A stretch of DNA of 19,267 bases from an uncultured Pelagibacteraceae bacterium (GTDB lineage: Bacteria > Pseudomonadota > Alphaproteobacteria > Pelagibacterales > Pelagibacteraceae): assembly GCA_902549785.1 (NCBI GenBank), contig CACCWT010000014.1, positions 1-19,267 of the forward strand, given 5' to 3'. The notes beneath the pieces were generated by a model. That model was not told where the DNA came from, searched no databases, and saw only the letters and a program-made list of their open reading frames with translations. Of this stretch, positions 8,280 to 19,267 are shown one piece after another. Position 1 is the stretch's first letter, and every line of letters begins with the position of its first letter. The translations under genes were made by a program, and so were the position numbers.

Positions 8280-8436
8280 CCTTTCGAAAAAATGGGATTA
8301 AAAAAACAATACATGCAATTAGAAAAAAAAGACTCCCAAACATAGCCCAAAAACTTCCCACACTTGATATTATAAAACCCAACGCAGAAATAATGAATAA
8401 TATCCAACCAATTAAATTAATATTTTTATTGCTCAT
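8263..8436 (-). CDS. Small two-helix membrane protein between blh and ispH
   Basis: 57 residues from the ATG at 8436; a TTG at 8445 would add three residues but is a poorer start. Two hydrophobic helices lie at about 7-26 and 29-49, joined by a short turn and followed by a charged tail (FRKDEIEK). The paired helix pattern with SALGFIISSVGSF and GSLFFLIACIVFLIP is loosely like YrhK-type domains, a weak resemblance I would not rely on. It overlaps blh by 11 bases and ispH by 17, so it is translated within the retinal operon. The overlaps and clean membrane pattern argue that it is a real gene. A role in retinal or rhodopsin biogenesis, or as a membrane anchor, is only a guess from position. Confidence 0.7.
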   Translation of the reverse strand: MSNKNINLIGWILFIISALGFIISSVGSFWAMFGSLFFLIACIVFLIPFFRKDEIEK

Positions 8437-9319
8437 TTTTTTCAATTAAATATTCGAGCAATATATGAGGAAAAGTTAATGAGGCCAATCCAATAAAAAT
8501 TACTCGATATATAGTTTCGTTAAATTCGTTATAATTATTCAGAATTGATATTGAAACAACATACCCAAAAATTGTTAAAATTGTAAGTGGAAAGGCTTTT
8601 TTAACGAATATTGGTAAACCTTTTGTCAAATTTTTATTTATTTCTCTAATCAAAGAAATCGAGTGTCTGATAGAGTGTAAAAAGCAAAAGTAAATCGTAA
8701 AAGCAATTATTGGATTAGAAAAATAATTTAGGATTAGTATTGATAAATAATCCATTAACAATAATGATTTAACTTCAATATTTTTTTTAAATGATAAAAT
8801 AATTCCAGAGAGCAAAGATAAAAAAATAAGAATGAATAATATCTCGTCAGATATTATTAAATAATTTGAAATATTAAAATTTAATGTCTCGAAAATTGCG
8901 AGTGTTTCCTCTTTATGGAAAAATAAGGGTGATGTAATAATTAATGATCCTTTTAAAAAATAAATTAATTCGAAATTTTTCTTTTGATTGATAAATTCAG
9001 AGTCCTCTTTTCCAAAATGATAAGCAGCTATAATTAAAAATAAGAAAAGTAATGATTTTGGAAATATTAACCAAATTAATATTGTAACTGCACCAATAAG
9101 CAAATAACACAAATAAAAAACGCTCATTGATCTATATCCCAAATATTTAATCAGTTTTTTACCTTTAATATTATCAAGAGAACCATGAGATATTCCAATT
9201 GATAAAATTAAAAATAAAGAAATAATTAAGAAACTACCTTCTCTTAGATAATCAATTCCTGATAAAAATATACAAAAATTAAAAAAAATTAAAGAGTGGT
9301 AAAAATTAATTCTAATCAT
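8426..9319 (-). CDS. blh: Beta-carotene 15,15'-dioxygenase (Brp/Blh family)
   Basis: Iron-dependent membrane enzyme that splits beta-carotene into two retinal molecules, the chromophore of proteorhodopsin. The 297-residue protein is almost entirely hydrophobic helices. It has the family's four histidine iron ligands: H45 in GISHGSLDN, H101 in AAYHFGKED, and H215 and H219 in FLHSIRHS. A C-terminal FPHILLEYL motif is also present. Placement directly after crtI, crtB and crtY on the same strand confirms the pathway. The protein is rich in Ile/Leu/Phe even for its family. No rhodopsin gene lies in the window, so the opsin must be encoded elsewhere if present. Confidence 0.94.
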   Translation of the reverse strand: MIRINFYHSLIFFNFCIFLSGIDYLREGSFLIISLFLILSIGISHGSLDNIKGKKLIKYLGYRSMSVFYLCYLLIGAVTILIWLIFPKSLLFLFLIIAAYHFGKEDSEFINQKKNFELIYFLKGSLIITSPLFFHKEETLAIFETLNFNISNYLIISDEILFILIFLSLLSGIILSFKKNIEVKSLLLMDYLSILILNYFSNPIIAFTIYFCFLHSIRHSISLIREINKNLTKGLPIFVKKAFPLTILTIFGYVVSISILNNYNEFNETIYRVIFIGLASLTFPHILLEYLIEKNEQ

Positions 9320-9324
9320 TTAAT

Positions 9325-10389
9325 TTAAAAAAGTGCTTTGATAAAAATCCATTTAGGCATTTTTAATATTATTGATAAATCTTCAAACAAATTACTTCTA
9401 TTCGATAAAAATTTTATAACAGTATTAGATTTATTATTAAACATCCTAAAAAAAATATTTGGCATTTTGCTTGGATTATTTTTAAGAACTTTTAAAAAAA
9501 TATTATCAAGAAATTGGTATTTTTTTTTAATTCGAAAAGTTTTCAATTTACTAATGTTTTCGATATTTTCTCTTATGTATTTACTTTGTTCTTGAATATT
9601 TAGAAAAGTATAACCAGTACTTAACCTTGTCATACCACCAGCCGTTCCAATATGAATTTTATTTTTTACTTGGTCAATTATTGGGTAAAAAAGAGGTATT
9701 GCACCTACTTCTTTGTATGTAATCTTATAATCTTTTATTTTAAGATTATTCTCAATATAATCTTTAATTTGCTGATCATAATCTTTTTGGGAATCATCAT
9801 TCATTTCTGATAACCAAGTTGTCTCAACTAATGCTGTTTTTTTTGAATATGGAAGTGTATAAAAAAAATGAACACTTCCTCTCTGCTCACAATCAAAATC
9901 CATTAAATTCATCATTTCTTCATCAAAAAATTCTTTTTTTGTCTCTATTTCTACCCCACAGAAATGTTGCCAAAGACCAGAGTTTTGATTATCTAAGTTT
10001 GGAACGCTATTAAATACTAAGGATTTATCAATATTTATATTATGATCATTTTTGTGAAAGGAAATATTCTTATTCTGTTTTAATTTAGTATTTATTTTCT
10101 CATAAAATAATCCACTGTCTATAGTTTGATATGGAAAACTATTACACTCCAGATGTTTAGTTTTTTGTGGTATATTTATAGAAAAATGTTCCCAGTTTTT
10201 TTTTACACAGTCATCAAAATTATGTGAATATGTTTTCCAGAAAGACCATGTTTTATCTTTTTTGTATTCATCTCTTCGTTCAATGATCGCTAAAGTTTTA
10301 TCTTTTAACTTATTATTGATCTCTAATTCATACGCTAAAGATAATCCTGCACAACCTCCTCCAATTATAACAAAATCAAAATCTTTCAT
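9325..10389 (-). CDS. crtY: Lycopene beta-cyclase
   Basis: FAD-containing enzyme that cyclises both ends of lycopene to make beta-carotene, the substrate of Blh. The 354-residue protein begins with a dinucleotide-binding motif VIIGGGCAGLSLA at about 7-19. It has the family signature DKTWSFW at about 45-51, the WQHFCGVEIET segment, an acidic MDFDCEQ stretch, PLFYPIID, and GTAGGMTRLSTGYTF toward the C-terminus. This is the bacterial CrtY type rather than CrtL or a heterodimeric cyclase. It is slightly shorter than the roughly 380 residues usual for CrtY. Its start overlaps the end of crtB by 14 bases and blh follows after 5 bases. Confidence 0.95.
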   Translation of the reverse strand: MKDFDFVIIGGGCAGLSLAYELEINNKLKDKTLAIIERRDEYKKDKTWSFWKTYSHNFDDCVKKNWEHFSINIPQKTKHLECNSFPYQTIDSGLFYEKINTKLKQNKNISFHKNDHNINIDKSLVFNSVPNLDNQNSGLWQHFCGVEIETKKEFFDEEMMNLMDFDCEQRGSVHFFYTLPYSKKTALVETTWLSEMNDDSQKDYDQQIKDYIENNLKIKDYKITYKEVGAIPLFYPIIDQVKNKIHIGTAGGMTRLSTGYTFLNIQEQSKYIRENIENISKLKTFRIKKKYQFLDNIFLKVLKNNPSKMPNIFFRMFNNKSNTVIKFLSNRSNLFEDLSIILKMPKWIFIKALF

Positions 10390-11227
10390 TTAAATTTATT
10401 TCTTCACTTATTAATTCGTGTTCTTTATCTCTAAGGTGATTATGTTTTTTAATCAATGATAGTTTTATCAAGTCAAATATAGATAATAATGTTTGCAATA
10501 TCTTACCATTATTAGTTACAAAAATTTTACCTGATTTATTATAATTTTGAATTGTTTGTTTTTTAATAATATTTCTTCCAATTTGTCTATAAACTCTTCT
10601 TGCAACTAAAATTGAAAATCGAAGACTGAAAGGAATATCTTTTATTGATGAAAAGCTACTATCATAAAATAAATCTGCAGTAGCCAATGTTTCTTTTATT
10701 GTTTCAAAATTATGCTTTATATAAAATCTTTTATTTTTTGAGTCCTCTACTACATCTCTGGAAATATTTGTAAGCTGCATTGCTATACCTAAATCTATAG
10801 CTGATTTAAGAGAATTAGAGCTAGTTACATTTAAAATTTTTGCCATCATTAATCCAACAGTTCCAGCTACTCTATAAGAATAAATTAATAATTCCTTTTT
10901 TGAATTTAATCTTATTTCATTTTGAATATCAGACTCCACACCATCGAATAAGTCTTCTACAATCTTTGTGGAAATATTATATTCATCCATTAATAACCAC
11001 ATATTTTTAATTATATGGTTCTGAAATTCTTTATTGATAAAATTATTTTTGAAATTTAAAAATCTTCTTAATTTAACATCAATTGTACCTTCATCGTCTG
11101 CTATATTGTCTAAAGTTCTACAAAAATCGTATAAATTAGAACATTTTAAATAAGTTTCTTTGGGAAGAAAAAAACCAGCCCAGTTAAATGATTTTGCGTA
11201 TATTGATAGAAAACTCTTTTTCTCCAT
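10376..11227 (-). CDS. crtB: Phytoene synthase
   Basis: Condenses two geranylgeranyl diphosphates head-to-head to phytoene, the first committed carotenoid step. The 283-residue squalene/phytoene synthase family protein has both metal-binding Asp motifs, DNIAD with D40 and D44 and DVVED with D158 and D162. It also has YDFCRTLDN, YRVAGTVGLMM at about 118-128, and QLTNISRDV. The ATG overlaps the crtI stop by one base (TAATG) and the end overlaps crtY by 14 bases, so it is tightly coupled in the operon. The GGPP it needs must come from a crtE/ispA-type synthase outside the window. Confidence 0.96.
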   Translation of the reverse strand: MEKKSFLSIYAKSFNWAGFFLPKETYLKCSNLYDFCRTLDNIADDEGTIDVKLRRFLNFKNNFINKEFQNHIIKNMWLLMDEYNISTKIVEDLFDGVESDIQNEIRLNSKKELLIYSYRVAGTVGLMMAKILNVTSSNSLKSAIDLGIAMQLTNISRDVVEDSKNKRFYIKHNFETIKETLATADLFYDSSFSSIKDIPFSLRFSILVARRVYRQIGRNIIKKQTIQNYNKSGKIFVTNNGKILQTLLSIFDLIKLSLIKKHNHLRDKEHELISEEINLNERF

Positions 11228-12684
11228 TATAGAATTTTGTCTAAGACTTTTGCTGAAGATAGTACTCCAGGCACACCTGCTCCAGGATGAGTACCTGCTC
11301 CAACAAAATATAAACCATCAAAAATCTCTGACTTATTATGAAATCTAAAATAAGCTGATTGGGTAAATTTTGGTTGAATAGAAAAACCTGAGCCATATTT
11401 TGTATTTAACTCTTTCTCAAAATAATCTGGCGTTAAATAAAAATCCTCAACAATATTTTCACTTAGATTAGGTAATAAACTTTCCTCCATTTTTTTAATA
11501 ACTAAGTTTTTCATTTTATTTCCCTCAATAGACCAGTCTATACCAGACTGGTTGTTAGGAACTGGTACTAACACATAAAAACAATCATGATTATCAGGCG
11601 CCATCGATTTGTCTGTAGCTGTTGGTCTATGTAAATAGTAACTAATATCGTCATTTAATTTTTTATTGTTAAAAATATCATCCAAGTGTTCCTTGTACTT
11701 GTCTCCAAATTTGATGGTATGATGTTCAATATTGTTGTAAACTTTTTTGGTTCCAAAGTAATACACAAACAAACCCATTGAATATTCCATTCTTTTCATT
11801 TTCCAATTAAAAATAGAATTACTACTATTCGTGTTTGCTAATTTTGAGTAAACTGCAGGTGGATCAGCGTTACAAATGACATTATCTGTTTCTATTTTAT
11901 CCCCGTTGTTTAATTCAACGCCAGTTATTTTATTTTTATTTGATACGATTTTATTTACTTCGCATCCTTTTAATATTTTAATATGTTCTTCATTCATTAA
12001 TTTTTCCATGCCATTTATTATTTGACCAGTTCCTCCCATTGAGTAATGAATTCCCCATTTTTTTTCCAAATATAAGATTAGTCCATATATTGAAGTTGTT
12101 GTGAAAGGATTACCACCTACCAATAGTGGGTGCATACTAAGTAATCTTCTTAATTTTTCATTTTCTATGTAAGAAGAAACCAAACCATAAACAGATTTAT
12201 AACTCTTTAAATTAAATAAAGAGGGTATTTGCTTTAACATAAAGGAGGGTTTATCAAATGGGACATCTGATAGTTCAGTAAAACCTTTATCAAAAATCTT
12301 TTTTGTAAAATTAACTAAATTTTTATATCCGTTAACATCTTTTTCGTTAATCTTTTTTATTTGATTAACCATTTCTTCTTCATTACCAGAATAGTCAAAC
12401 TTAAAACCATCTTCAAAAACAAATTGATACCAAGTTTTTAAAGATTTTATTTCTAAATAATCTTTAGAATTCTTGTTAAAAAGCTGAAATAATTCATCAA
12501 TTAAGTAGGGCGCTGTTATCACAGTTGGACCGCCATCAAACGTAAATCCATTTTTTTTAAAAACTCTCGCCCGTCCACCTAAATCTTCATGTTTTTCAAT
12601 CAAGGTTACATTGTGGCCTTTAGCTTTTAACCTTAATGCTGCAGCCATGCCACCAAAACCTGATCCTATTACTATCGAATTCAT
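11227..12684 (-). CDS. crtI: Phytoene desaturase
   Basis: FAD-dependent oxidoreductase that makes four successive desaturations of phytoene to lycopene. The 485-residue protein opens with VIGSGFGGMAAALRL (FAD-binding glycines at 7-12), then EKHEDLGGRAR at about 30-40 and FTFDGGPTVI at about 47-56. It ends with the CrtI signature GLYFVGAGTHPGAGVPGVLSSAK. Length matches CrtI. It is the first gene of the retinal block, following atpF after 44 bases, the largest gap in the minus-strand run, so a promoter just upstream is plausible. There is no obvious Shine-Dalgarno. It could be read through from the ATP synthase genes. Confidence 0.97.
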   Translation of the reverse strand: MNSIVIGSGFGGMAAALRLKAKGHNVTLIEKHEDLGGRARVFKKNGFTFDGGPTVITAPYLIDELFQLFNKNSKDYLEIKSLKTWYQFVFEDGFKFDYSGNEEEMVNQIKKINEKDVNGYKNLVNFTKKIFDKGFTELSDVPFDKPSFMLKQIPSLFNLKSYKSVYGLVSSYIENEKLRRLLSMHPLLVGGNPFTTTSIYGLILYLEKKWGIHYSMGGTGQIINGMEKLMNEEHIKILKGCEVNKIVSNKNKITGVELNNGDKIETDNVICNADPPAVYSKLANTNSSNSIFNWKMKRMEYSMGLFVYYFGTKKVYNNIEHHTIKFGDKYKEHLDDIFNNKKLNDDISYYLHRPTATDKSMAPDNHDCFYVLVPVPNNQSGIDWSIEGNKMKNLVIKKMEESLLPNLSENIVEDFYLTPDYFEKELNTKYGSGFSIQPKFTQSAYFRFHNKSEIFDGLYFVGAGTHPGAGVPGVLSSAKVLDKIL

Positions 12685-14799: not shown

Positions 14800-15075
14800 T
14801 TATTTTTGCATTTTTTTTGCTGATTTAATTACATTCATTATTCCTGCAATTACTCCTACAAAAAAAAATATTAAAATTAACCATGGCTTAGTACCAAACC
14901 AATTGTCTAAAATAAACCCAATAATTGTCCCAACAGCAACTGCAGCAACTAATTCAGTGCTCATTTTAAAAGCATGACCCATTCCAGATGTTGAAGGCTC
15001 TTTACTGTCAGAATATTTGGATTTTGCTCTATTTTTTGCACTTTTAAGGCGAGTTTTAAAATCTTCCTCTTTCAT
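14800..15075 (-). CDS. atpI: AtpI-family ATP synthase accessory protein
   Basis: Small membrane protein thought to help assemble the c-ring or supply Mg2+ to ATP synthase. The 91-residue protein has a basic, Ser/Lys-rich N-terminus of about 35 residues. Two helices (about 41-58 and 65-84) carry the family pattern ELVAAVAVGTIIGFILDNWFGTKPW followed by GVIAGIMNV. It is the first gene of the F0 block, 4 bases after smc, so no room exists for a separate ATP synthase promoter between them. Transcription from smc or from within its 3' end is implied. Confidence 0.9.
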   Translation of the reverse strand: MKEEDFKTRLKSAKNRAKSKYSDSKEPSTSGMGHAFKMSTELVAAVAVGTIIGFILDNWFGTKPWLILIFFFVGVIAGIMNVIKSAKKMQK

Positions 15076-15079
15076 TAGC

Positions 15080-17653
15080 CTAAGCTACCATGCTCTCAGC
15101 TTTTTGAAGGTCAACAGCAACTAGTTGACTTATTCCTTTCTCTGGCATCGTAACCCCATATAATCTATCCATTTTTGACATTGTTAAAGCATGGTGGGTT
15201 ACTATTATAAATCTTGTAGACGTAATCTTTGTCAGTTCATTTAATAGATTACAAAATCTTGTTACATTTGCATCATCTAGTGGTGCATCTACTTCATCAA
15301 GTACACAAATAGGGGATGGATTAGTAAGAAATACTGCAAATATCAAGGATAATGCAGTCAAAGCTTGTTCACCCCCAGAAAGCAAGGTAATGGATTGAAG
15401 TCTTTTACCAGGAGGACTGACTAGCATTTCCAAACCAGCATCTAGTGGGTCATCTGAGTCTACAAGTTCTAATTTAGCGCTACCCCCATTAAATAATTTT
15501 GTATAAACCTCGTTAAATTTTCTATTCACTCTCTCAAAAGCATCCAACAATCTTTCTCGACCTTTTTGATTAAGTTCAGTTATGCTCTCTTTTAACTTCA
15601 ATATTGCCGTTACAAGATCCTGCCTATCTTGTTCCATTTTTTTGATTTCAGTTTTATACTTTTCAGTTTCATCATCTGCTCTTAAATTAACAGATCCAAA
15701 TTTTTCTCTTTCCCTTTTTTTTTCATCAAGTAATTCTTCTTGGGTCACTAAATCTGGAAATTCATTTCCTTTTTCTAAATTTGAATAATTAAGTATATTT
15801 TCTTCTTCTACGTTTAACTCTGTCATAACTCTTTCCAATAAATCACTTCTTCTTTTGTTTAAACCTTCAATTGTTGCTCCAGAGCTAGCTTTCTTCTCTC
15901 TAATTTCTATTGAACTTTCTTTTGTATTATTTAATTGAAATCTAAATTCTGTAATATTATTATCAATTTTTTCAACTAAAATTTCATTTTCATTTTTTTC
16001 ATTTTCTGAAATTCTTAAATTTTCAGAAATCTTCCCTTTTTTTTCTGCTTGAGACTCTGGCTGTTTTTCTAGATCACTTAATTTATCTACAAGCTTACTC
16101 TTTCTCGCATTGAGTTCATTTACCATTTTTTCAGAATTACTTAAAAGATTTTGCCAGCTCTCAAATTCTTGATCAATAATACTTATTCTTTCTTTTCTTT
16201 TAACAGACTCTTTCTTTATACTTTGGTTTTTACTATAAGTTTCAGCATAATCATCCTGTAATTTCTTTATCTGATCACTTTTGGATGTTAGAGTTGAAAC
16301 TACATCATCATTTTCAACTTCTTTTATTTTCACAGTTAAGTAAGACAAATTAACTATACATTCATCTAAAATTTTTATTGTCTGGTGATTTCTATTTTCA
16401 GAAACTAGTTTTTTAACTTCTTCGATTTGATTTTTTATGGTTTTAATAATTTCGTTATGTTTTTTTAATGACTCAGAACTGAAACTCTCCAACAACACAT
16501 CCATCCTGTCTTGTTCATTCTTTAATTTTGATTTGGAATTTTCAAGGTCTTGACTTGAGAGTTTTTCTGTCTCATAATATTTTGAATCAGTATCAATTAG
16601 GATATTTCTCTCTTCTTTTAATCTTTTTTCGTTTGAATTTGCGTCAATAACAATGCTTTTTTCTCTATCAATATCCTCATCTAAAACCTTTATAGAACTT
16701 TTTATTGCATCTATCTCTTCGTTTATTCTGGTACTTTCCTCATCTAAAGACTTTAGTTCAAGATTTAATCTTTGAATCTTGGATAAATTTTCAATATTTT
16801 TTTGTCTTATAGGCTCTACTCTTTCAATTTCATTTTTAATTTTAGTTTCTAATTCAACAATTTGTTTATTAAATTCCTCAACTTTGCTATCTGCCTCATT
16901 ATTTACTTCATTTTCTAAAGTTATTTCTCTATCAATTTCTACAAGTCTTAAATAATAAAGTCCCGCCTCAACTTTTTTAATTTCTTCAGAAATTAATTTA
17001 TATTTTGCAGCTTCCTCTGCTTGTTTTTCTAAGTTTGCTAATTGTTTTTCCTGTTGCCTTCTTAATTCATCGGCTCTTTTTAAATTATTTTCTGCTGCCC
17101 CTAATCTAATTTCTGCTTCATGCCTTCTAGCATGCAAACCTGCAATTCCAGCAGCTTCTTCAAGTATAGCTCTCCTATCTGATGGTTTTGCTGTAACTAA
17201 TGCTCCAATTCTACCTTGACTTATCAGTGATGGTGAATGGGCGCCTGTGGATAGATCCGCAAAAAACATTTGTGCATCTTTTGCCCTAACTTCCTTATTG
17301 TTTATATAAAATTTTGACCCTTTGTCTTTTTCAATTTTCCTTTTAATTTCTATTTCCTCAAGATCGTTGTATTGGTGAGGTCCATCCTTATTTTCATTGT
17401 TCAAACTTAAAACTACTTCAGCAATATTTTTTGAAGGTTTATTTGATGTGCCTGAAAATATCACATCCTCCATTCCTGAACCCCTCATACTTTTTGCTGA
17501 AGTCTCTCCCATACACCATCTAAGAGACTCAACTATGTTTGACTTACCACAACCGTTAGGACCAACAATTCCTGTGAGACCTTTTTCAATTAAAAAGTTA
17601 GTTTTTTCTGCAAAAGACTTAAAGCCATTTAATTGGATTTTTTTAAACTCCAT
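15080..17653 (-). CDS. smc: Chromosome segregation SMC ATPase, short form lacking a recognisable hinge
   Basis: ABC-type ATPase of the condensin complex that organises and segregates the chromosome. At 857 residues it is about 300 shorter than typical bacterial SMC. The N-terminal head is intact: FKSF at 11-14, Walker A GPNGCGKS at 31-38, and ISQGRIGALVTAKPSDRRAILEEAAGI at about 145-170. So is the C-terminal head: signature LLSGGEQ at about 757-763, Walker B VLDEVDAPLDD with D786 and E787, and H820/H821. Residues about 175-700 are charged coiled coil. The globular Gly-rich hinge expected in the middle is missing; about 385-460 is a helical Lys/Asn/Ser-rich stretch instead. The reading frame has no break, so this is not a pseudogene. 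Gene order dciA-dsbA-smc is typical of alphaproteobacteria. Confidence 0.95.
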   Translation of the reverse strand: MEFKKIQLNGFKSFAEKTNFLIEKGLTGIVGPNGCGKSNIVESLRWCMGETSAKSMRGSGMEDVIFSGTSNKPSKNIAEVVLSLNNENKDGPHQYNDLEEIEIKRKIEKDKGSKFYINNKEVRAKDAQMFFADLSTGAHSPSLISQGRIGALVTAKPSDRRAILEEAAGIAGLHARRHEAEIRLGAAENNLKRADELRRQQEKQLANLEKQAEEAAKYKLISEEIKKVEAGLYYLRLVEIDREITLENEVNNEADSKVEEFNKQIVELETKIKNEIERVEPIRQKNIENLSKIQRLNLELKSLDEESTRINEEIDAIKSSIKVLDEDIDREKSIVIDANSNEKRLKEERNILIDTDSKYYETEKLSSQDLENSKSKLKNEQDRMDVLLESFSSESLKKHNEIIKTIKNQIEEVKKLVSENRNHQTIKILDECIVNLSYLTVKIKEVENDDVVSTLTSKSDQIKKLQDDYAETYSKNQSIKKESVKRKERISIIDQEFESWQNLLSNSEKMVNELNARKSKLVDKLSDLEKQPESQAEKKGKISENLRISENEKNENEILVEKIDNNITEFRFQLNNTKESSIEIREKKASSGATIEGLNKRRSDLLERVMTELNVEEENILNYSNLEKGNEFPDLVTQEELLDEKKREREKFGSVNLRADDETEKYKTEIKKMEQDRQDLVTAILKLKESITELNQKGRERLLDAFERVNRKFNEVYTKLFNGGSAKLELVDSDDPLDAGLEMLVSPPGKRLQSITLLSGGEQALTALSLIFAVFLTNPSPICVLDEVDAPLDDANVTRFCNLLNELTKITSTRFIIVTHHALTMSKMDRLYGVTMPEKGISQLVAVDLQKAESMVA

Positions 17654-17661
17654 TCAATGAC

Positions 17662-18243
17662 TTATATCAGTTTTTCAATATATTTTTTTAATTTTTTGTA
17701 GTTTTTTGGATTTTCGAACTTTTCACCGTTGATTATAAGTGTTGGAGTTGCTTCTATTTTGTAGTTTTTTGCCCCATCGATTCGGTCTTCTAAAATAAAA
17801 TCTTCAATTTTTGAGTCGGCGATACATTTATCAAAATCTAATTTGAAAACAGATTCTTGAACTACTTTTTTTAAATTTTTATTGAGATCCTCTATTGTGC
17901 TTCCTTTAATCCAGCTACTTTGATTGTTGTATAAGTGATGAAGTATTTCTGATTTTCCATCATTCCTACAATGAGCTATTTTTGATGCATTAAATGCAGC
18001 AATATCTAAAGGAAAATTTCTAAATTCGATTGATATTAAACCATTATCAATAAAATCTTTTTTTAAACTTGGATAAACATTTTTATGAAAATCTGCACAA
18101 TGACTACATGTTAGAGACTCGAATACAACAAGTTTTACTTTTGCATCAACACTGCCTTCTATTATTGGTTTAATTTCCGCTTTTAAATTAAATGAAGTAA
18201 AAAATAATAATATTATTATTGTTTTTATAAAAATTTTTTTCAT
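17662..18243 (-). CDS. DsbA-like periplasmic thiol:disulfide oxidoreductase
   Basis: Secreted thioredoxin-fold protein likely involved in disulfide chemistry of exported proteins. The 193-residue protein has a signal peptide (basic MKKIFIKT, hydrophobic core to about 20, probable cleavage near KAE at 21-23). The active site is C46-S-H-C49, and the conserved cis-proline is P167 in EATPTLIING. A helical insert lies between them, as in DsbA. Extra cysteines C92 and C140 are present. It resembles the DsbA/DSBA-like thioredoxin family that precedes smc in alphaproteobacteria. Its start overlaps the dciA stop by four bases (ATGA) and it is 8 bases from smc. Whether it oxidises or isomerises cannot be told. 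Confidence 0.9.
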   Translation of the reverse strand: MKKIFIKTIIILLFFTSFNLKAEIKPIIEGSVDAKVKLVVFESLTCSHCADFHKNVYPSLKKDFIDNGLISIEFRNFPLDIAAFNASKIAHCRNDGKSEILHHLYNNQSSWIKGSTIEDLNKNLKKVVQESVFKLDFDKCIADSKIEDFILEDRIDGAKNYKIEATPTLIINGEKFENPKNYKKLKKYIEKLI

Positions 18244-18719
18244 TTTGTTTTAAATAGTTTATTTAACTCAAGTAAAGATTGTTTAATTTTATCATTCTTA
18301 ATATTGTTAATCTTCTTAATATTTTTACTTTTTGTCGCATTATCAATTTTGTTTTCCTTGATTTTTTTAAACTCTCCCTCAAATGTTTTTAGCTTTATGT
18401 TATCAACTACATTATAACCAAAAAATATATTTATTTTTTTCAAAATTTCTTTCTTAGAATATTCAAGGTCTACTTCATTTCCTCTTTTAACCATTATGCT
18501 TAAACAGCTTCCATTTATTTTTGAATTTTTAAAAGATATTGGATAGCAAACATTAAATAATTCTTTTCCAGCAAGAAATTTCCAATTATCTAGGGTATTT
18601 GAATAAATTTGGCCTTTTTTACTCAATATTCTTTTTGCTTCTTGGGGCAAAGTATCTTTAAAAGATCTTAGTCCTTGAACAGATTTATTTCTCTGCTTAG
18701 TATTATATTTAAAATTCAT
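18240..18719 (-). CDS. dciA: DciA-like (DUF721) protein
   Basis: DUF721/DciA proteins help load the replicative helicase DnaB in bacteria lacking DnaC. From the ATG at 18719 the protein has 159 residues; a TTG at 18731 would extend it into mutY and is less likely. The DUF721-like part covers about residues 10-112 and includes WKFLAGKELFNVCYPISF, the beta-strand LSIMV and ILKKINIFFGYNVVDNIKLKTF. The last 45 residues are a Lys/Asn-rich tail of low complexity. It is the first gene of the 16-gene minus-strand run and its start codon abuts that of mutY. The family assignment rests on pattern and on the conserved mutY-DUF721-dsbA-smc neighbourhood. Confidence 0.82.
   Translation of the reverse strand: MNFKYNTKQRNKSVQGLRSFKDTLPQEAKRILSKKGQIYSNTLDNWKFLAGKELFNVCYPISFKNSKINGSCLSIMVKRGNEVDLEYSKKEILKKINIFFGYNVVDNIKLKTFEGEFKKIKENKIDNATKSKNIKKINNIKNDKIKQSLLELNKLFKTK
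18675..18703 (+). promoter_or_regulatory. Possible mutY promoter inside dciA
   Basis: TTGAAC (18675-18680) and TAGTAT (18698-18703) are 17 bases apart, each matching four of six consensus positions. Transcription would start about 10 bases before the mutY ATG. It lies within the 5' coding region of dciA on the other strand. Low confidence: the base composition makes chance matches likely, but a promoter must lie here because there is no intergenic space. Confidence 0.25.
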
Positions 18720-19267
18720 ATGACAAGTCAAAATATACCAAATAAAATTTTAAAATGGTACGACAATAATAAACGTAGTCTTCCTTGGCGAAAAAAAATC
18801 TCTAAAAGTCAAAAAGAATACCTCACTTTGGTGAGTGAATTTATGTTGCAGCAAACTCAAGTTAAGACGGTAATCCCATATTTTGAAAATTTTATTTCTA
18901 AAATTCCAGATTTAAAAAGTTTATCAAAAGTAAGAGATGCTAAATTAATGAAATGTTGGGAGGGGTTGGGATATTATTCAAGAGCAAGAAATCTTAAAAA
19001 ATCAGCAAAACTAATTATAAATGAATTTAATGGTCAGCTTCCAAATAATGAGGAAGATTTAAAATCTCTTCCTGGGGTTGGAGATTATACATCAAAGGCA
19101 ATCATGGCAATTGCATTCAATAAAAAAATAATTCCTTTAGATGGAAATGTTGAAAGAATTTTAAAAAGAGTATTTTATTTAAAAAAAGAAAAAGAAATTT
19201 CTAAAGAAAATTTACATAAAAAAAAAATTTTTTTTGGAGAAACAACTAGAGCTAGTGATTACGCTCA
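18720..19267 (+). CDS. mutY: Adenine DNA glycosylase MutY (3' end cut by window edge)
   Basis: Removes adenine mispaired with 8-oxoguanine in base-excision repair. An open frame runs from the ATG at 18720 to the edge; 182 codons are visible. The N-terminus has the MutY pattern W-Y-x3-RxxLPWR at about 13-24, and catalytic E40 in SEFMLQQTQV. WEGLGYYSRARNL lies at about 80-92, the helix-hairpin-helix LPGVGDYTSKAI at about 117-128, and catalytic D141 in PLDGNVERILKRV. YYSRARNL and the EFMLQQT form separate it from endonuclease III. The iron-sulfur and C-terminal NUDIX-like domains would lie beyond the window. The start directly abuts the divergent dciA start. Confidence 0.95.
   Translation, partial: MTSQNIPNKILKWYDNNKRSLPWRKKISKSQKEYLTLVSEFMLQQTQVKTVIPYFENFISKIPDLKSLSKVRDAKLMKCWEGLGYYSRARNLKKSAKLIINEFNGQLPNNEEDLKSLPGVGDYTSKAIMAIAFNKKIIPLDGNVERILKRVFYLKKEKEISKENLHKKKIFFGETTRASDYA

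What the first reader, a model, noticed from the sequence alone, without database searches (positions are those of the whole stretch)
15080..17653. SMC with intact ATPase heads but no recognisable hinge domain
The protein has 857 residues instead of about 1150-1200. Both heads and the sequences flanking them look like normal alphaproteobacterial SMC. The centre (about residues 385-460) is a polar helical stretch with no Gly-rich globular hinge. The hinge normally dimerises SMC, so this protein must dimerise differently, act as a monomer or V-shaped pair, or use a compact replacement. This could be a lineage-wide reduction of the condensin machine in streamlined genomes. The length and motifs are seen directly; the loss of hinge function is inference.
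Basis: partly seen in the sequence, partly recalled or inferred. Interest (0 to 1): 0.72.

Follow-up and report, generated by a model that had tools for sequence, protein, structure and literature searches.

The report
SAR11 condensin that lost its hinge
The chromosome-organising protein SMC of SAR11, the abundant ocean bacteria, has lost the central hinge that in other organisms joins two SMC arms into a ring, while its motor heads and partner proteins remain.

Summary
Confirmed. The 857-aa smc ORF lies on the minus strand (17653..15080). Head motifs are intact and it scores above NCBIfam's SMC_prok_B cut-off, but no hinge is detectable. Pfam's hinge model is weak in this class (58 of 190 genomes), so I built an alphaproteobacterial hinge profile: it hits 119 of 190 class genomes, 72 of 80 genomes of another small-genome order with equally short SMCs (mostly 868-882 aa), and 0 of 147 genomes of the window's order (Pelagibacterales; SMC match in 137). 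Profile-profile comparison: 0.3% for the window family, 99.7% for the short hinged SMCs. AlphaFold2 (pTM only 0.32) puts a helical hairpin at the tip and no strand between residues 173 and 720. Against a full-length relative, 352 residues (114 + hinge 128 + 110) became 58. ScpA, ScpB and ParB remain, gene order is ancestral, selection is purifying. So Pelagibacterales carry an orthologous SMC that lost hinge and distal arms. How it dimerises is inferred: ScpA, ATP-bound heads and arm contacts, perhaps the tip hairpin. 'Hinge-less' SMCs were reported in 2025 from marine actinobacteria; the searches made listed no report for SAR11. A second alphaproteobacterial family (2 genomes) also lacks a detectable hinge.

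The parts
15080..17653 (-). smc ORF, 857 aa, hinge-less SMC
   Evidence: ORF; TIGR02168 667 bits, cut-off 567.35; no hinge
17540..17563 (-). Walker A, residues 31-38
   Evidence: invariant columns
16481..17137 (-). N-terminal arm helix, residues 173-391
   Evidence: AlphaFold2 helix H173-391
16310..16480 (-). tip, residues 392-448: predicted helical hairpin (H394-418, H422-445) where the hinge stood; among the most variable parts of the protein
15584..16309 (-). C-terminal arm, residues 449-690
   Evidence: AlphaFold2 helices from 449 on; the end at 690 is my estimate
15365..15385 (-). ABC signature motif LLSGGEQ, residues 757-763
15266..15310 (-). Walker B and D-loop, residues 782-796, with E787
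17662..18243 (-). DsbA/thioredoxin-like gene directly upstream; gene order shared with hinged alphaproteobacterial smc
   Evidence: PF13462 2.5e-34; synteny
18240..18731 (-). DciA gene upstream
   Evidence: PF05258 1.2e-10; synteny
14800..15075 (-). small ORF downstream (AtpI-like by its place before the ATP synthase genes; name from recall), conserved neighbour
   Evidence: position

Best explanation
SHOWN: this is the orthologous alphaproteobacterial smc gene. Across the order its central hinge domain (about 128 aa) and about 110 residues of arm on either side are gone, with a short stretch, predicted helical, at the tip instead (58 residues in the window, next to nothing extra in the 798-aa forms). 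The ATPase heads, the ScpA/ScpB partners and ParB remain, and the protein is under purifying selection. INFERRED: it still works as the SMC-ScpAB condensin motor. Two SMC monomers are held together at the head end (ScpA bridging the neck of one and the cap of the other, ScpB2, and ATP-dependent head engagement; roles recalled from B. subtilis work), helped by side-by-side contacts of the shortened arms. The arms end in free hairpin tips, so the hinge-closed SMC ring does not exist or is closed only weakly. The motor would act as an ATP-gated clamp and rod rather than a permanently closed tripartite ring.
For: Hinge absent: PF06470 in 0 of 147 order genomes and custom profile in 0 of 147. The custom profile works as a control: its 19-row form recognises 19 of 19 class proteins when each is held out, at 120 bits or more, and finds the hinge in L057 and L058, which were not in it; its 21-row form, which includes those two, hits 119 of 190 class genomes and 72 of 80 genomes of their order. 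hhalign: window family against hinge probability 0.3%; L057/L058 against a hinge profile built without them 99.7%, E 1.1e-25. AlphaFold2: no strand between 173 and 720. Symmetric loss: relative to G199, 352 residues (114 + hinge 128 + 110) against 58 in the window (my arithmetic). Orthology: dsb upstream in 109 of 110 and the small ATP-synthase-side ORF downstream in 110 of 110 loci of the order; the same neighbours in hinged class loci. Function kept: motifs 131 of 131; dN/dS 0.00-0.04 in the heads and 0.05-0.43 in the tip in 8 comparisons, two of them identical. Partners: ScpA 125, ScpB 126, ParB 133 of 147. [quoted passage not shown] subtilis Smc (PMC5526789, passage), and hinge-less Smc5 and Smc6 subcomplexes associate in the presence of ATP (PMC8327961, passage).
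Against: No dimer was modelled or measured. Parts of the tip are conserved among 857-aa proteins (C432 in 215, L436 in 228, N420 in 222 of 230), and family f2 has its own conserved tip (7 sequences). That fits a replacement interface better than a free end. The AlphaFold2 model has low global confidence (pTM 0.32; tip blocks pLDDT 58-80), and its planned positive control did not run.
Confidence: 0.55

Rival explanations
1. Compact replacement: the tip hairpins of two SMCs pack into a small helical bundle that dimerises the arms, so the ring is still closed but by a new module that arose in place of the hinge.
For: The tip is predicted as a helical hairpin. It is under purifying selection and has near-invariant positions among 857-aa proteins. 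By eye, one alignment keeps a similar hairpin in the 798-aa forms. Family f2 has its own conserved tip.
Against: Columns 401-460 have the highest entropy of the alignment. Protein length varies from 798 to 881 aa, mostly by tip length, and families share no evident tip motif. In one search the 798-aa forms align as 1-394 plus 447-857, which would leave the hairpin out; the alignment there is ambiguous. Best PDB sequence match to the tip is E 0.027 to an Arp2/3 subunit, i.e. chance level.
Confidence: 0.3
2. Cryptic hinge: a hinge fold is present but diverged beyond recognition.
For: PF06470 misses most alphaproteobacterial hinges (58 of 190 genomes against 119 of 190 with the custom profile), so a missing Pfam hit alone proves little.
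Against: The custom profile finds hinges in the short SMCs of another order but nothing in Pelagibacterales; hhalign 0.3%; no strands predicted; the 798-aa forms leave too few residues at the tip for a 120-aa domain.
Confidence: 0.03
3. Hinge in trans: a separate small protein supplies the hinge or clamps the two tips.
For: Not excluded for an unrelated clamp protein.
Against: No hinge-like frame in 147 genomes by two profiles.
Confidence: 0.04
4. Repurposed protein: without a hinge it no longer acts as condensin but as a RecN- or Rad50-like repair ATPase or a head-only DNA clamp.
For: RecN and Rad50/SbcC are hinge-less relatives (recalled).
Against: Scores above the SMC_prok_B cut-off and far below Rad50 cut-offs; no CxxC in the window protein; ScpA, ScpB and ParB kept; ancestral locus.
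Confidence: 0.08

Closest known systems
SMC of hinged alphaproteobacteria (TIGR02168 SMC_prok_B; 19 proteins compared, 1102-1173 aa after trimming)
   Same: Heads, motifs, locus (dsb upstream, ATP-synthase side downstream), ScpA/ScpB/ParB partners.
   Different: No hinge; arms about 110 residues shorter each; 857 aa.
Short hinged SMC of another order of the class (families f32 and f142; my guess HIMB59-like, from recall)
   Same: Mostly 868-882 aa, genomes of 0.9-1.6 Mb, same neighbours in L057 and, but for dciA, in L058.
   Different: Keeps a recognisable hinge (L057 105.9 bits, L058 89.5 bits; 72 of 80 genomes).
'Hinge-less' environmental SMC of marine actinobacteria (Sussfeld et al. 2025, PMC12153180; abstract and passages seen)
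   Same: SMC head and antiparallel coiled coil, no hinge, no CXXC, not found alongside a regular SMC.
   Different: Assigned there to class Actinomycetes; SAR11, Pelagibacter and Alphaproteobacteria do not occur in the main text. Here a whole alphaproteobacterial order, with partners and locus. Their sequences were not compared with mine.
Rad50/SbcC
   Same: ABC heads on a hairpin coiled coil without an SMC hinge (recalled).
   Different: No zinc-hook CxxC; Rad50 models far below cut-off.
Hinge-less B. subtilis Smc and yeast Smc5/6 constructs (PMC5526789, PMC8327961; passages seen)
   Same: Heads and arms can associate without a hinge.
   Different: Laboratory constructs, not a natural lineage.

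Membership tests
Bacterial SMC (SMC_prok_B, TIGR02168) | Score above curated cut-off over the whole protein | tested here: met
   667 bits against 567.35
Bacterial SMC (SMC_prok_B, TIGR02168) | Walker A, signature and Walker B of the ABC head | tested here: met
   131 of 131 proteins, window included
Bacterial SMC (SMC_prok_B, TIGR02168) | Central hinge dimerisation domain | tested here: not met
Bacterial SMC (SMC_prok_B, TIGR02168) | Encoded with ScpA and ScpB in the same genome | tested here: met
   125 and 126 of 147 genomes of the order; the window's own assembly is not held, its nearest genome G001 has both
Bacterial SMC (SMC_prok_B, TIGR02168) | Homodimer and binding to ScpA | not testable with these tools
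   no multimer prediction offered
Rad50/SbcC | CxxC zinc hook at the tip | tested here: not met
   no CxxC in the protein
Rad50/SbcC | Score above family cut-off | tested here: not met
   48.9 against 1087 bits (NF002572)
Hinge-less SMC of marine actinobacteria (PMC12153180) | SMC without hinge and without CXXC | tested here: met
Hinge-less SMC of marine actinobacteria (PMC12153180) | Branches with actinobacterial SMC | not tested
   their sequences were not held; that the window gene sits in the alphaproteobacterial smc locus speaks against it

The most novel reading that the evidence does not exclude
An entire order that includes some of the most numerous cells on Earth (recalled) runs an SMC-ScpAB condensin whose SMC arms are never closed into a ring at a hinge: a natural hinge-free SMC motor held together by kleisin, ATP-engaged heads and arms. 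That would show that neither a closed tripartite ring nor hinge DNA-binding is needed for a working, selected bacterial condensin.
Probability: 0.4. Interest if true: 0.85.

Novelty: new variant of a known kind. Interest (0 to 1): 0.62.

Why it matters
The hinge is treated as a core domain of SMC proteins: it dimerises them, closes the ring and contacts DNA. A whole, abundant order that keeps heads, kleisin, kite protein and ParB but not the hinge is a natural experiment on what the hinge is for. Another order with equally short but hinged SMCs is a matched control. The system is testable by grafting tips and hinges in laboratory bacteria and in cultured SAR11. It also shows that Pfam's hinge model under-calls alphaproteobacterial hinges, so a missing PF06470 hit should not be read as hinge loss.

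Tried and rejected
Rejected: (1) 'No PF06470 hit = no hinge': Caulobacter is not among the 10 of 14 control genomes in which the model rings, and it rings in only 58 of 190 class genomes, so a clade-specific profile was made. (2) 'Short = hinge-less': refuted by families f32 and f142. (3) Pseudogene or assembly artefact. (4) Second full-length smc; one search scored only 6 candidates a genome and its match list was cut. (5) Streamlining as sufficient cause. (6) A zinc hook at the tip: no CxxC. (7) One origin or two of hinge loss (Pelagibacterales and family f25): not resolved. The free tree puts them apart; holding them together is not rejected (p-AU 0.516) and scores 1.26 log-likelihood units better; f25 has a long branch and odd composition. 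(8) Hinged short SMCs as sister to Pelagibacterales: 24.75 log-likelihood units worse but not rejected (p 0.121).

Led nowhere: Foldseek against PDB returned SMC, condensin, cohesin, Smc5/6, Rad50, MukB and Wadjet chains with low TM-scores to the model in the 50 rows shown. The tip sequence has no significant PDB relative. Alignment A2 held a one-residue placeholder row and was replaced by A5.

Rows dropped before counts: L194 (wrong-strand ORF) from the 20 full-length class loci, so 19 were used; L180 (G109, internal TAG) never entered the protein set, so 19 of 20 loci did. The tree used 40 rows chosen by me out of those held. In the class draw 12 of 131 genomes with an SMC match lack a hinge match: G001 and G002 (window's order), G170 and G301 (f25), five whose listed SMC frames are only 274-541 aa (G163, G191, G211, G283, G333), and three weak matches that I take not to be SMC (G209, G254, G280) (my comparison of the tables). 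Of the 137 SMC matches in the order one, G118, is weak (6.2e-4). The 131 order proteins include many near-copies (111 are of 857 aa). L006 and L113 gave identical dN/dS values and are probably the same genome.

Full report
OBSERVATION. The finding's coordinates are right; the gene is on the minus strand. ORF 17653..15080 encodes 857 aa. The protein scores 667 bits with TIGR02168 SMC_prok_B, above the curated 567.35, and 174.5 bits with Pfam SMC_N, with no hinge family even at E<=1. Its best relatives among solved structures are bacterial SMC heads. The head motifs are intact in the window and in 131 of 131 proteins of its order, window included.

WHERE IT IS FROM. The window's own assembly is not held. 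The nearest genome G001 carries a 99% identical 857-aa copy, and the 80 named relatives kept, at up to 97% identity, are nearly all titled Pelagibacteraceae (one Pelagibacterales, one Candidatus Pelagibacter ubique). Of 147 genomes of the order, 137 have an SMC match (101 of 105 of those at least 90% complete), one of them weak. Among the rows listed (the list was cut) the open frames are 799-891 aa, apart from two of 533 and 746 aa that match only query residues 325-857 and 120-855.

IS THE HINGE REALLY ABSENT? Pfam's hinge model rings in 0 of 147 order genomes, but Caulobacter is not among the 10 of 14 control genomes in which it rings, and it rings in only 58 of 190 class genomes. It is therefore not a fair test. 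Aligning 19 full-length class SMCs (one of 20 loci dropped, wrong strand) shows a conserved hinge of 125-131 aa with a core reading about PGQ.LV...G..WRWDG. An HMM of it finds each held-out member at 120 bits or more. It also finds the hinge in two short SMCs that were not in it, L057 (881 aa, 105.9 bits) and L058 (869 aa, 89.5 bits). It finds nothing in the window, and in the other 130 proteins of the order one match of 1.9 bits away from the tip; the 21-row form gives 10 matches there, the best of 2.4 bits. As a genome search the 21-row profile (with L057 and L058 added) matches 119 of 190 class genomes and 0 of 147 genomes of the order. In the order that holds L057 and L058, with genomes of 0.9-1.6 Mb and SMC frames of mostly 868-882 aa, it matches 72 of 80. 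Profile-profile comparison gives probability 0.3% for the window family against the hinge, aligned to an unrelated stretch of the C-terminal head. It gives 99.7% and E 1.1e-25 for L057/L058 against a hinge profile built without them. AlphaFold2 on 50 sequences predicts no strand between residues 173 and 720 and a tip made of H173-391, H394-418, H422-445 and H449-529; mean pLDDT is 73 but pTM only 0.32. The positive-control fold of L057 was interrupted and could not be repeated.

ANATOMY OF THE LOSS. Against G199, the window's residues 2-395 and 454-857 align. The 352 residues between these blocks in G199 consist of 114 arm residues, the 128-residue hinge and 110 arm residues (coordinates; my arithmetic), against 58 in the window. 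The loss is symmetric about the hinge, as expected if the distal part of an antiparallel coiled-coil arm went with it. Columns 401-460 have the highest entropy of the 50-row alignment. Other members of the genus have 798-aa proteins that lack some 50-60 residues here; search matches place the gap at about 394-447, while MAFFT keeps a short hairpin and puts the gaps on both sides of it, so the alignment is ambiguous. Among 857-aa proteins parts of the tip are constrained: N420 in 222, C432 in 215 and L436 in 228 of 230, and tip dN/dS is 0.05-0.43 in 8 comparisons, two of them identical. Family f2 has a different, internally conserved tip (7 proteins).

ORTHOLOGY AND PARTNERS. Of 110 loci of the order, 109 have the Dsb-like gene upstream, 100 the DciA gene upstream and 110 the small ATP-synthase-side ORF downstream. 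Of 26 class loci, all from genomes with a hinge match, 9 show dsb and 6 dciA upstream and 13 (my count of the printed rows) the small ORF downstream; many loci reach only one side. So this is the ancestral smc locus, not a paralogue. Heads evolve at dN/dS 0.00-0.04. ScpA is found in 125, ScpB in 126 and ParB in 133 of 147 genomes (96, 95 and 97 of the 105 at least 90% complete), and each family also rings in Caulobacter among the controls.

EVOLUTION. On a tree of heads and neck-proximal arms (40 rows), the 15 Pelagibacterales rows form one supported clade (99/100). The two hinged short SMCs group together elsewhere. A further hinge-less lineage, family f25 (G170 and G301: frames of 820 and 806 aa; hinge profile 2.1 and 1.5 bits), falls apart from them. 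Joining all hinge-less rows is not rejected (p-AU 0.516), so one or two losses remain possible.

MECHANISM. Shown: hinge and distal arms lost; heads, partners and selection kept. Inferred: dimerisation at the head end by ScpA, ScpB2 and ATP, plus arm-arm contacts. [quoted passage not shown] subtilis (PMC5526789, passage). Hinge-less Smc5 and Smc6 subcomplexes associate in the presence of ATP (PMC8327961, passage). In a B. subtilis resizing screen, in which the hinge was kept, arms of 253-267 residues were functional, and 238 is a major natural mode (PMC5344682, sections 8 and 9 and passages). From the AlphaFold2 helix limits I estimate arms of about 245 residues here. The Rad50 zinc hook of fission yeast could be replaced by the MukB hinge (PMC6969161, passages), so some tip link might be expected; the tip hairpin is the candidate and is kept as the main rival.

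NOVELTY. Sussfeld et al. 2025 (PMC12153180; abstract and passages seen) describe 'hinge-less' marine SMCs assigned to class Actinomycetes; SAR11, Pelagibacter and Alphaproteobacteria do not occur in the main text. Searches for SMC with hinge and Pelagibacter, hingeless with SMC, SAR11 with chromosome segregation and SMC, SMC with phrases for lacking a hinge, hinge-less with SMC and Pelagibacterales with SMC listed no paper that, by its title and start of abstract, is on a SAR11 hinge loss; apart from the five papers named above I judged by listings alone, and most subscription papers and all preprints are not held. The kind 'hinge-less SMC' is therefore known; its fixation across an alphaproteobacterial order, with partners, locus and a matched hinged control order, appears new.

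Noticed in passing
L212, L213 (G301, G170; family f25): A second alphaproteobacterial lineage with small genomes (0.8-1.0 Mb, 71-79% complete) has SMC frames of 806-820 aa without a detectable hinge; whether the loss is independent is unresolved.
   Followed up: partly
class of G001: Pfam SMC_hinge PF06470 rings in 58 of 190 class genomes where a clade-specific profile matches 119; Caulobacter is not among the control genomes in which it rings, so PF06470-based surveys under-call hinges here.
   Followed up: yes
L180 (G109): The smc gene of this relative (family f1, g8) has one internal TAG in the first matched stretch; a sequencing error or a decaying copy could not be told apart.
   Followed up: no
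L170-L176 (family f2), about residues 385-460: Family f2 has its own conserved tip: KRD(D/E)W in 6 of 7 proteins and VE(G/N)YDD...WT in 7 of 7, unlike the tip of family f1.
   Followed up: partly
P0009: A 942-aa metagenomic relative, 75% identical over 74% of the query; the other 119 listed hits are 857 aa. It may carry an insert or a fused piece.
   Followed up: no
window 8426-12684: A minus-strand cluster that reads like carotenoid genes (crtI-, crtB- and crtY-like plus a Blh-like membrane protein; names from recall), as in retinal synthesis for proteorhodopsin.
   Followed up: no
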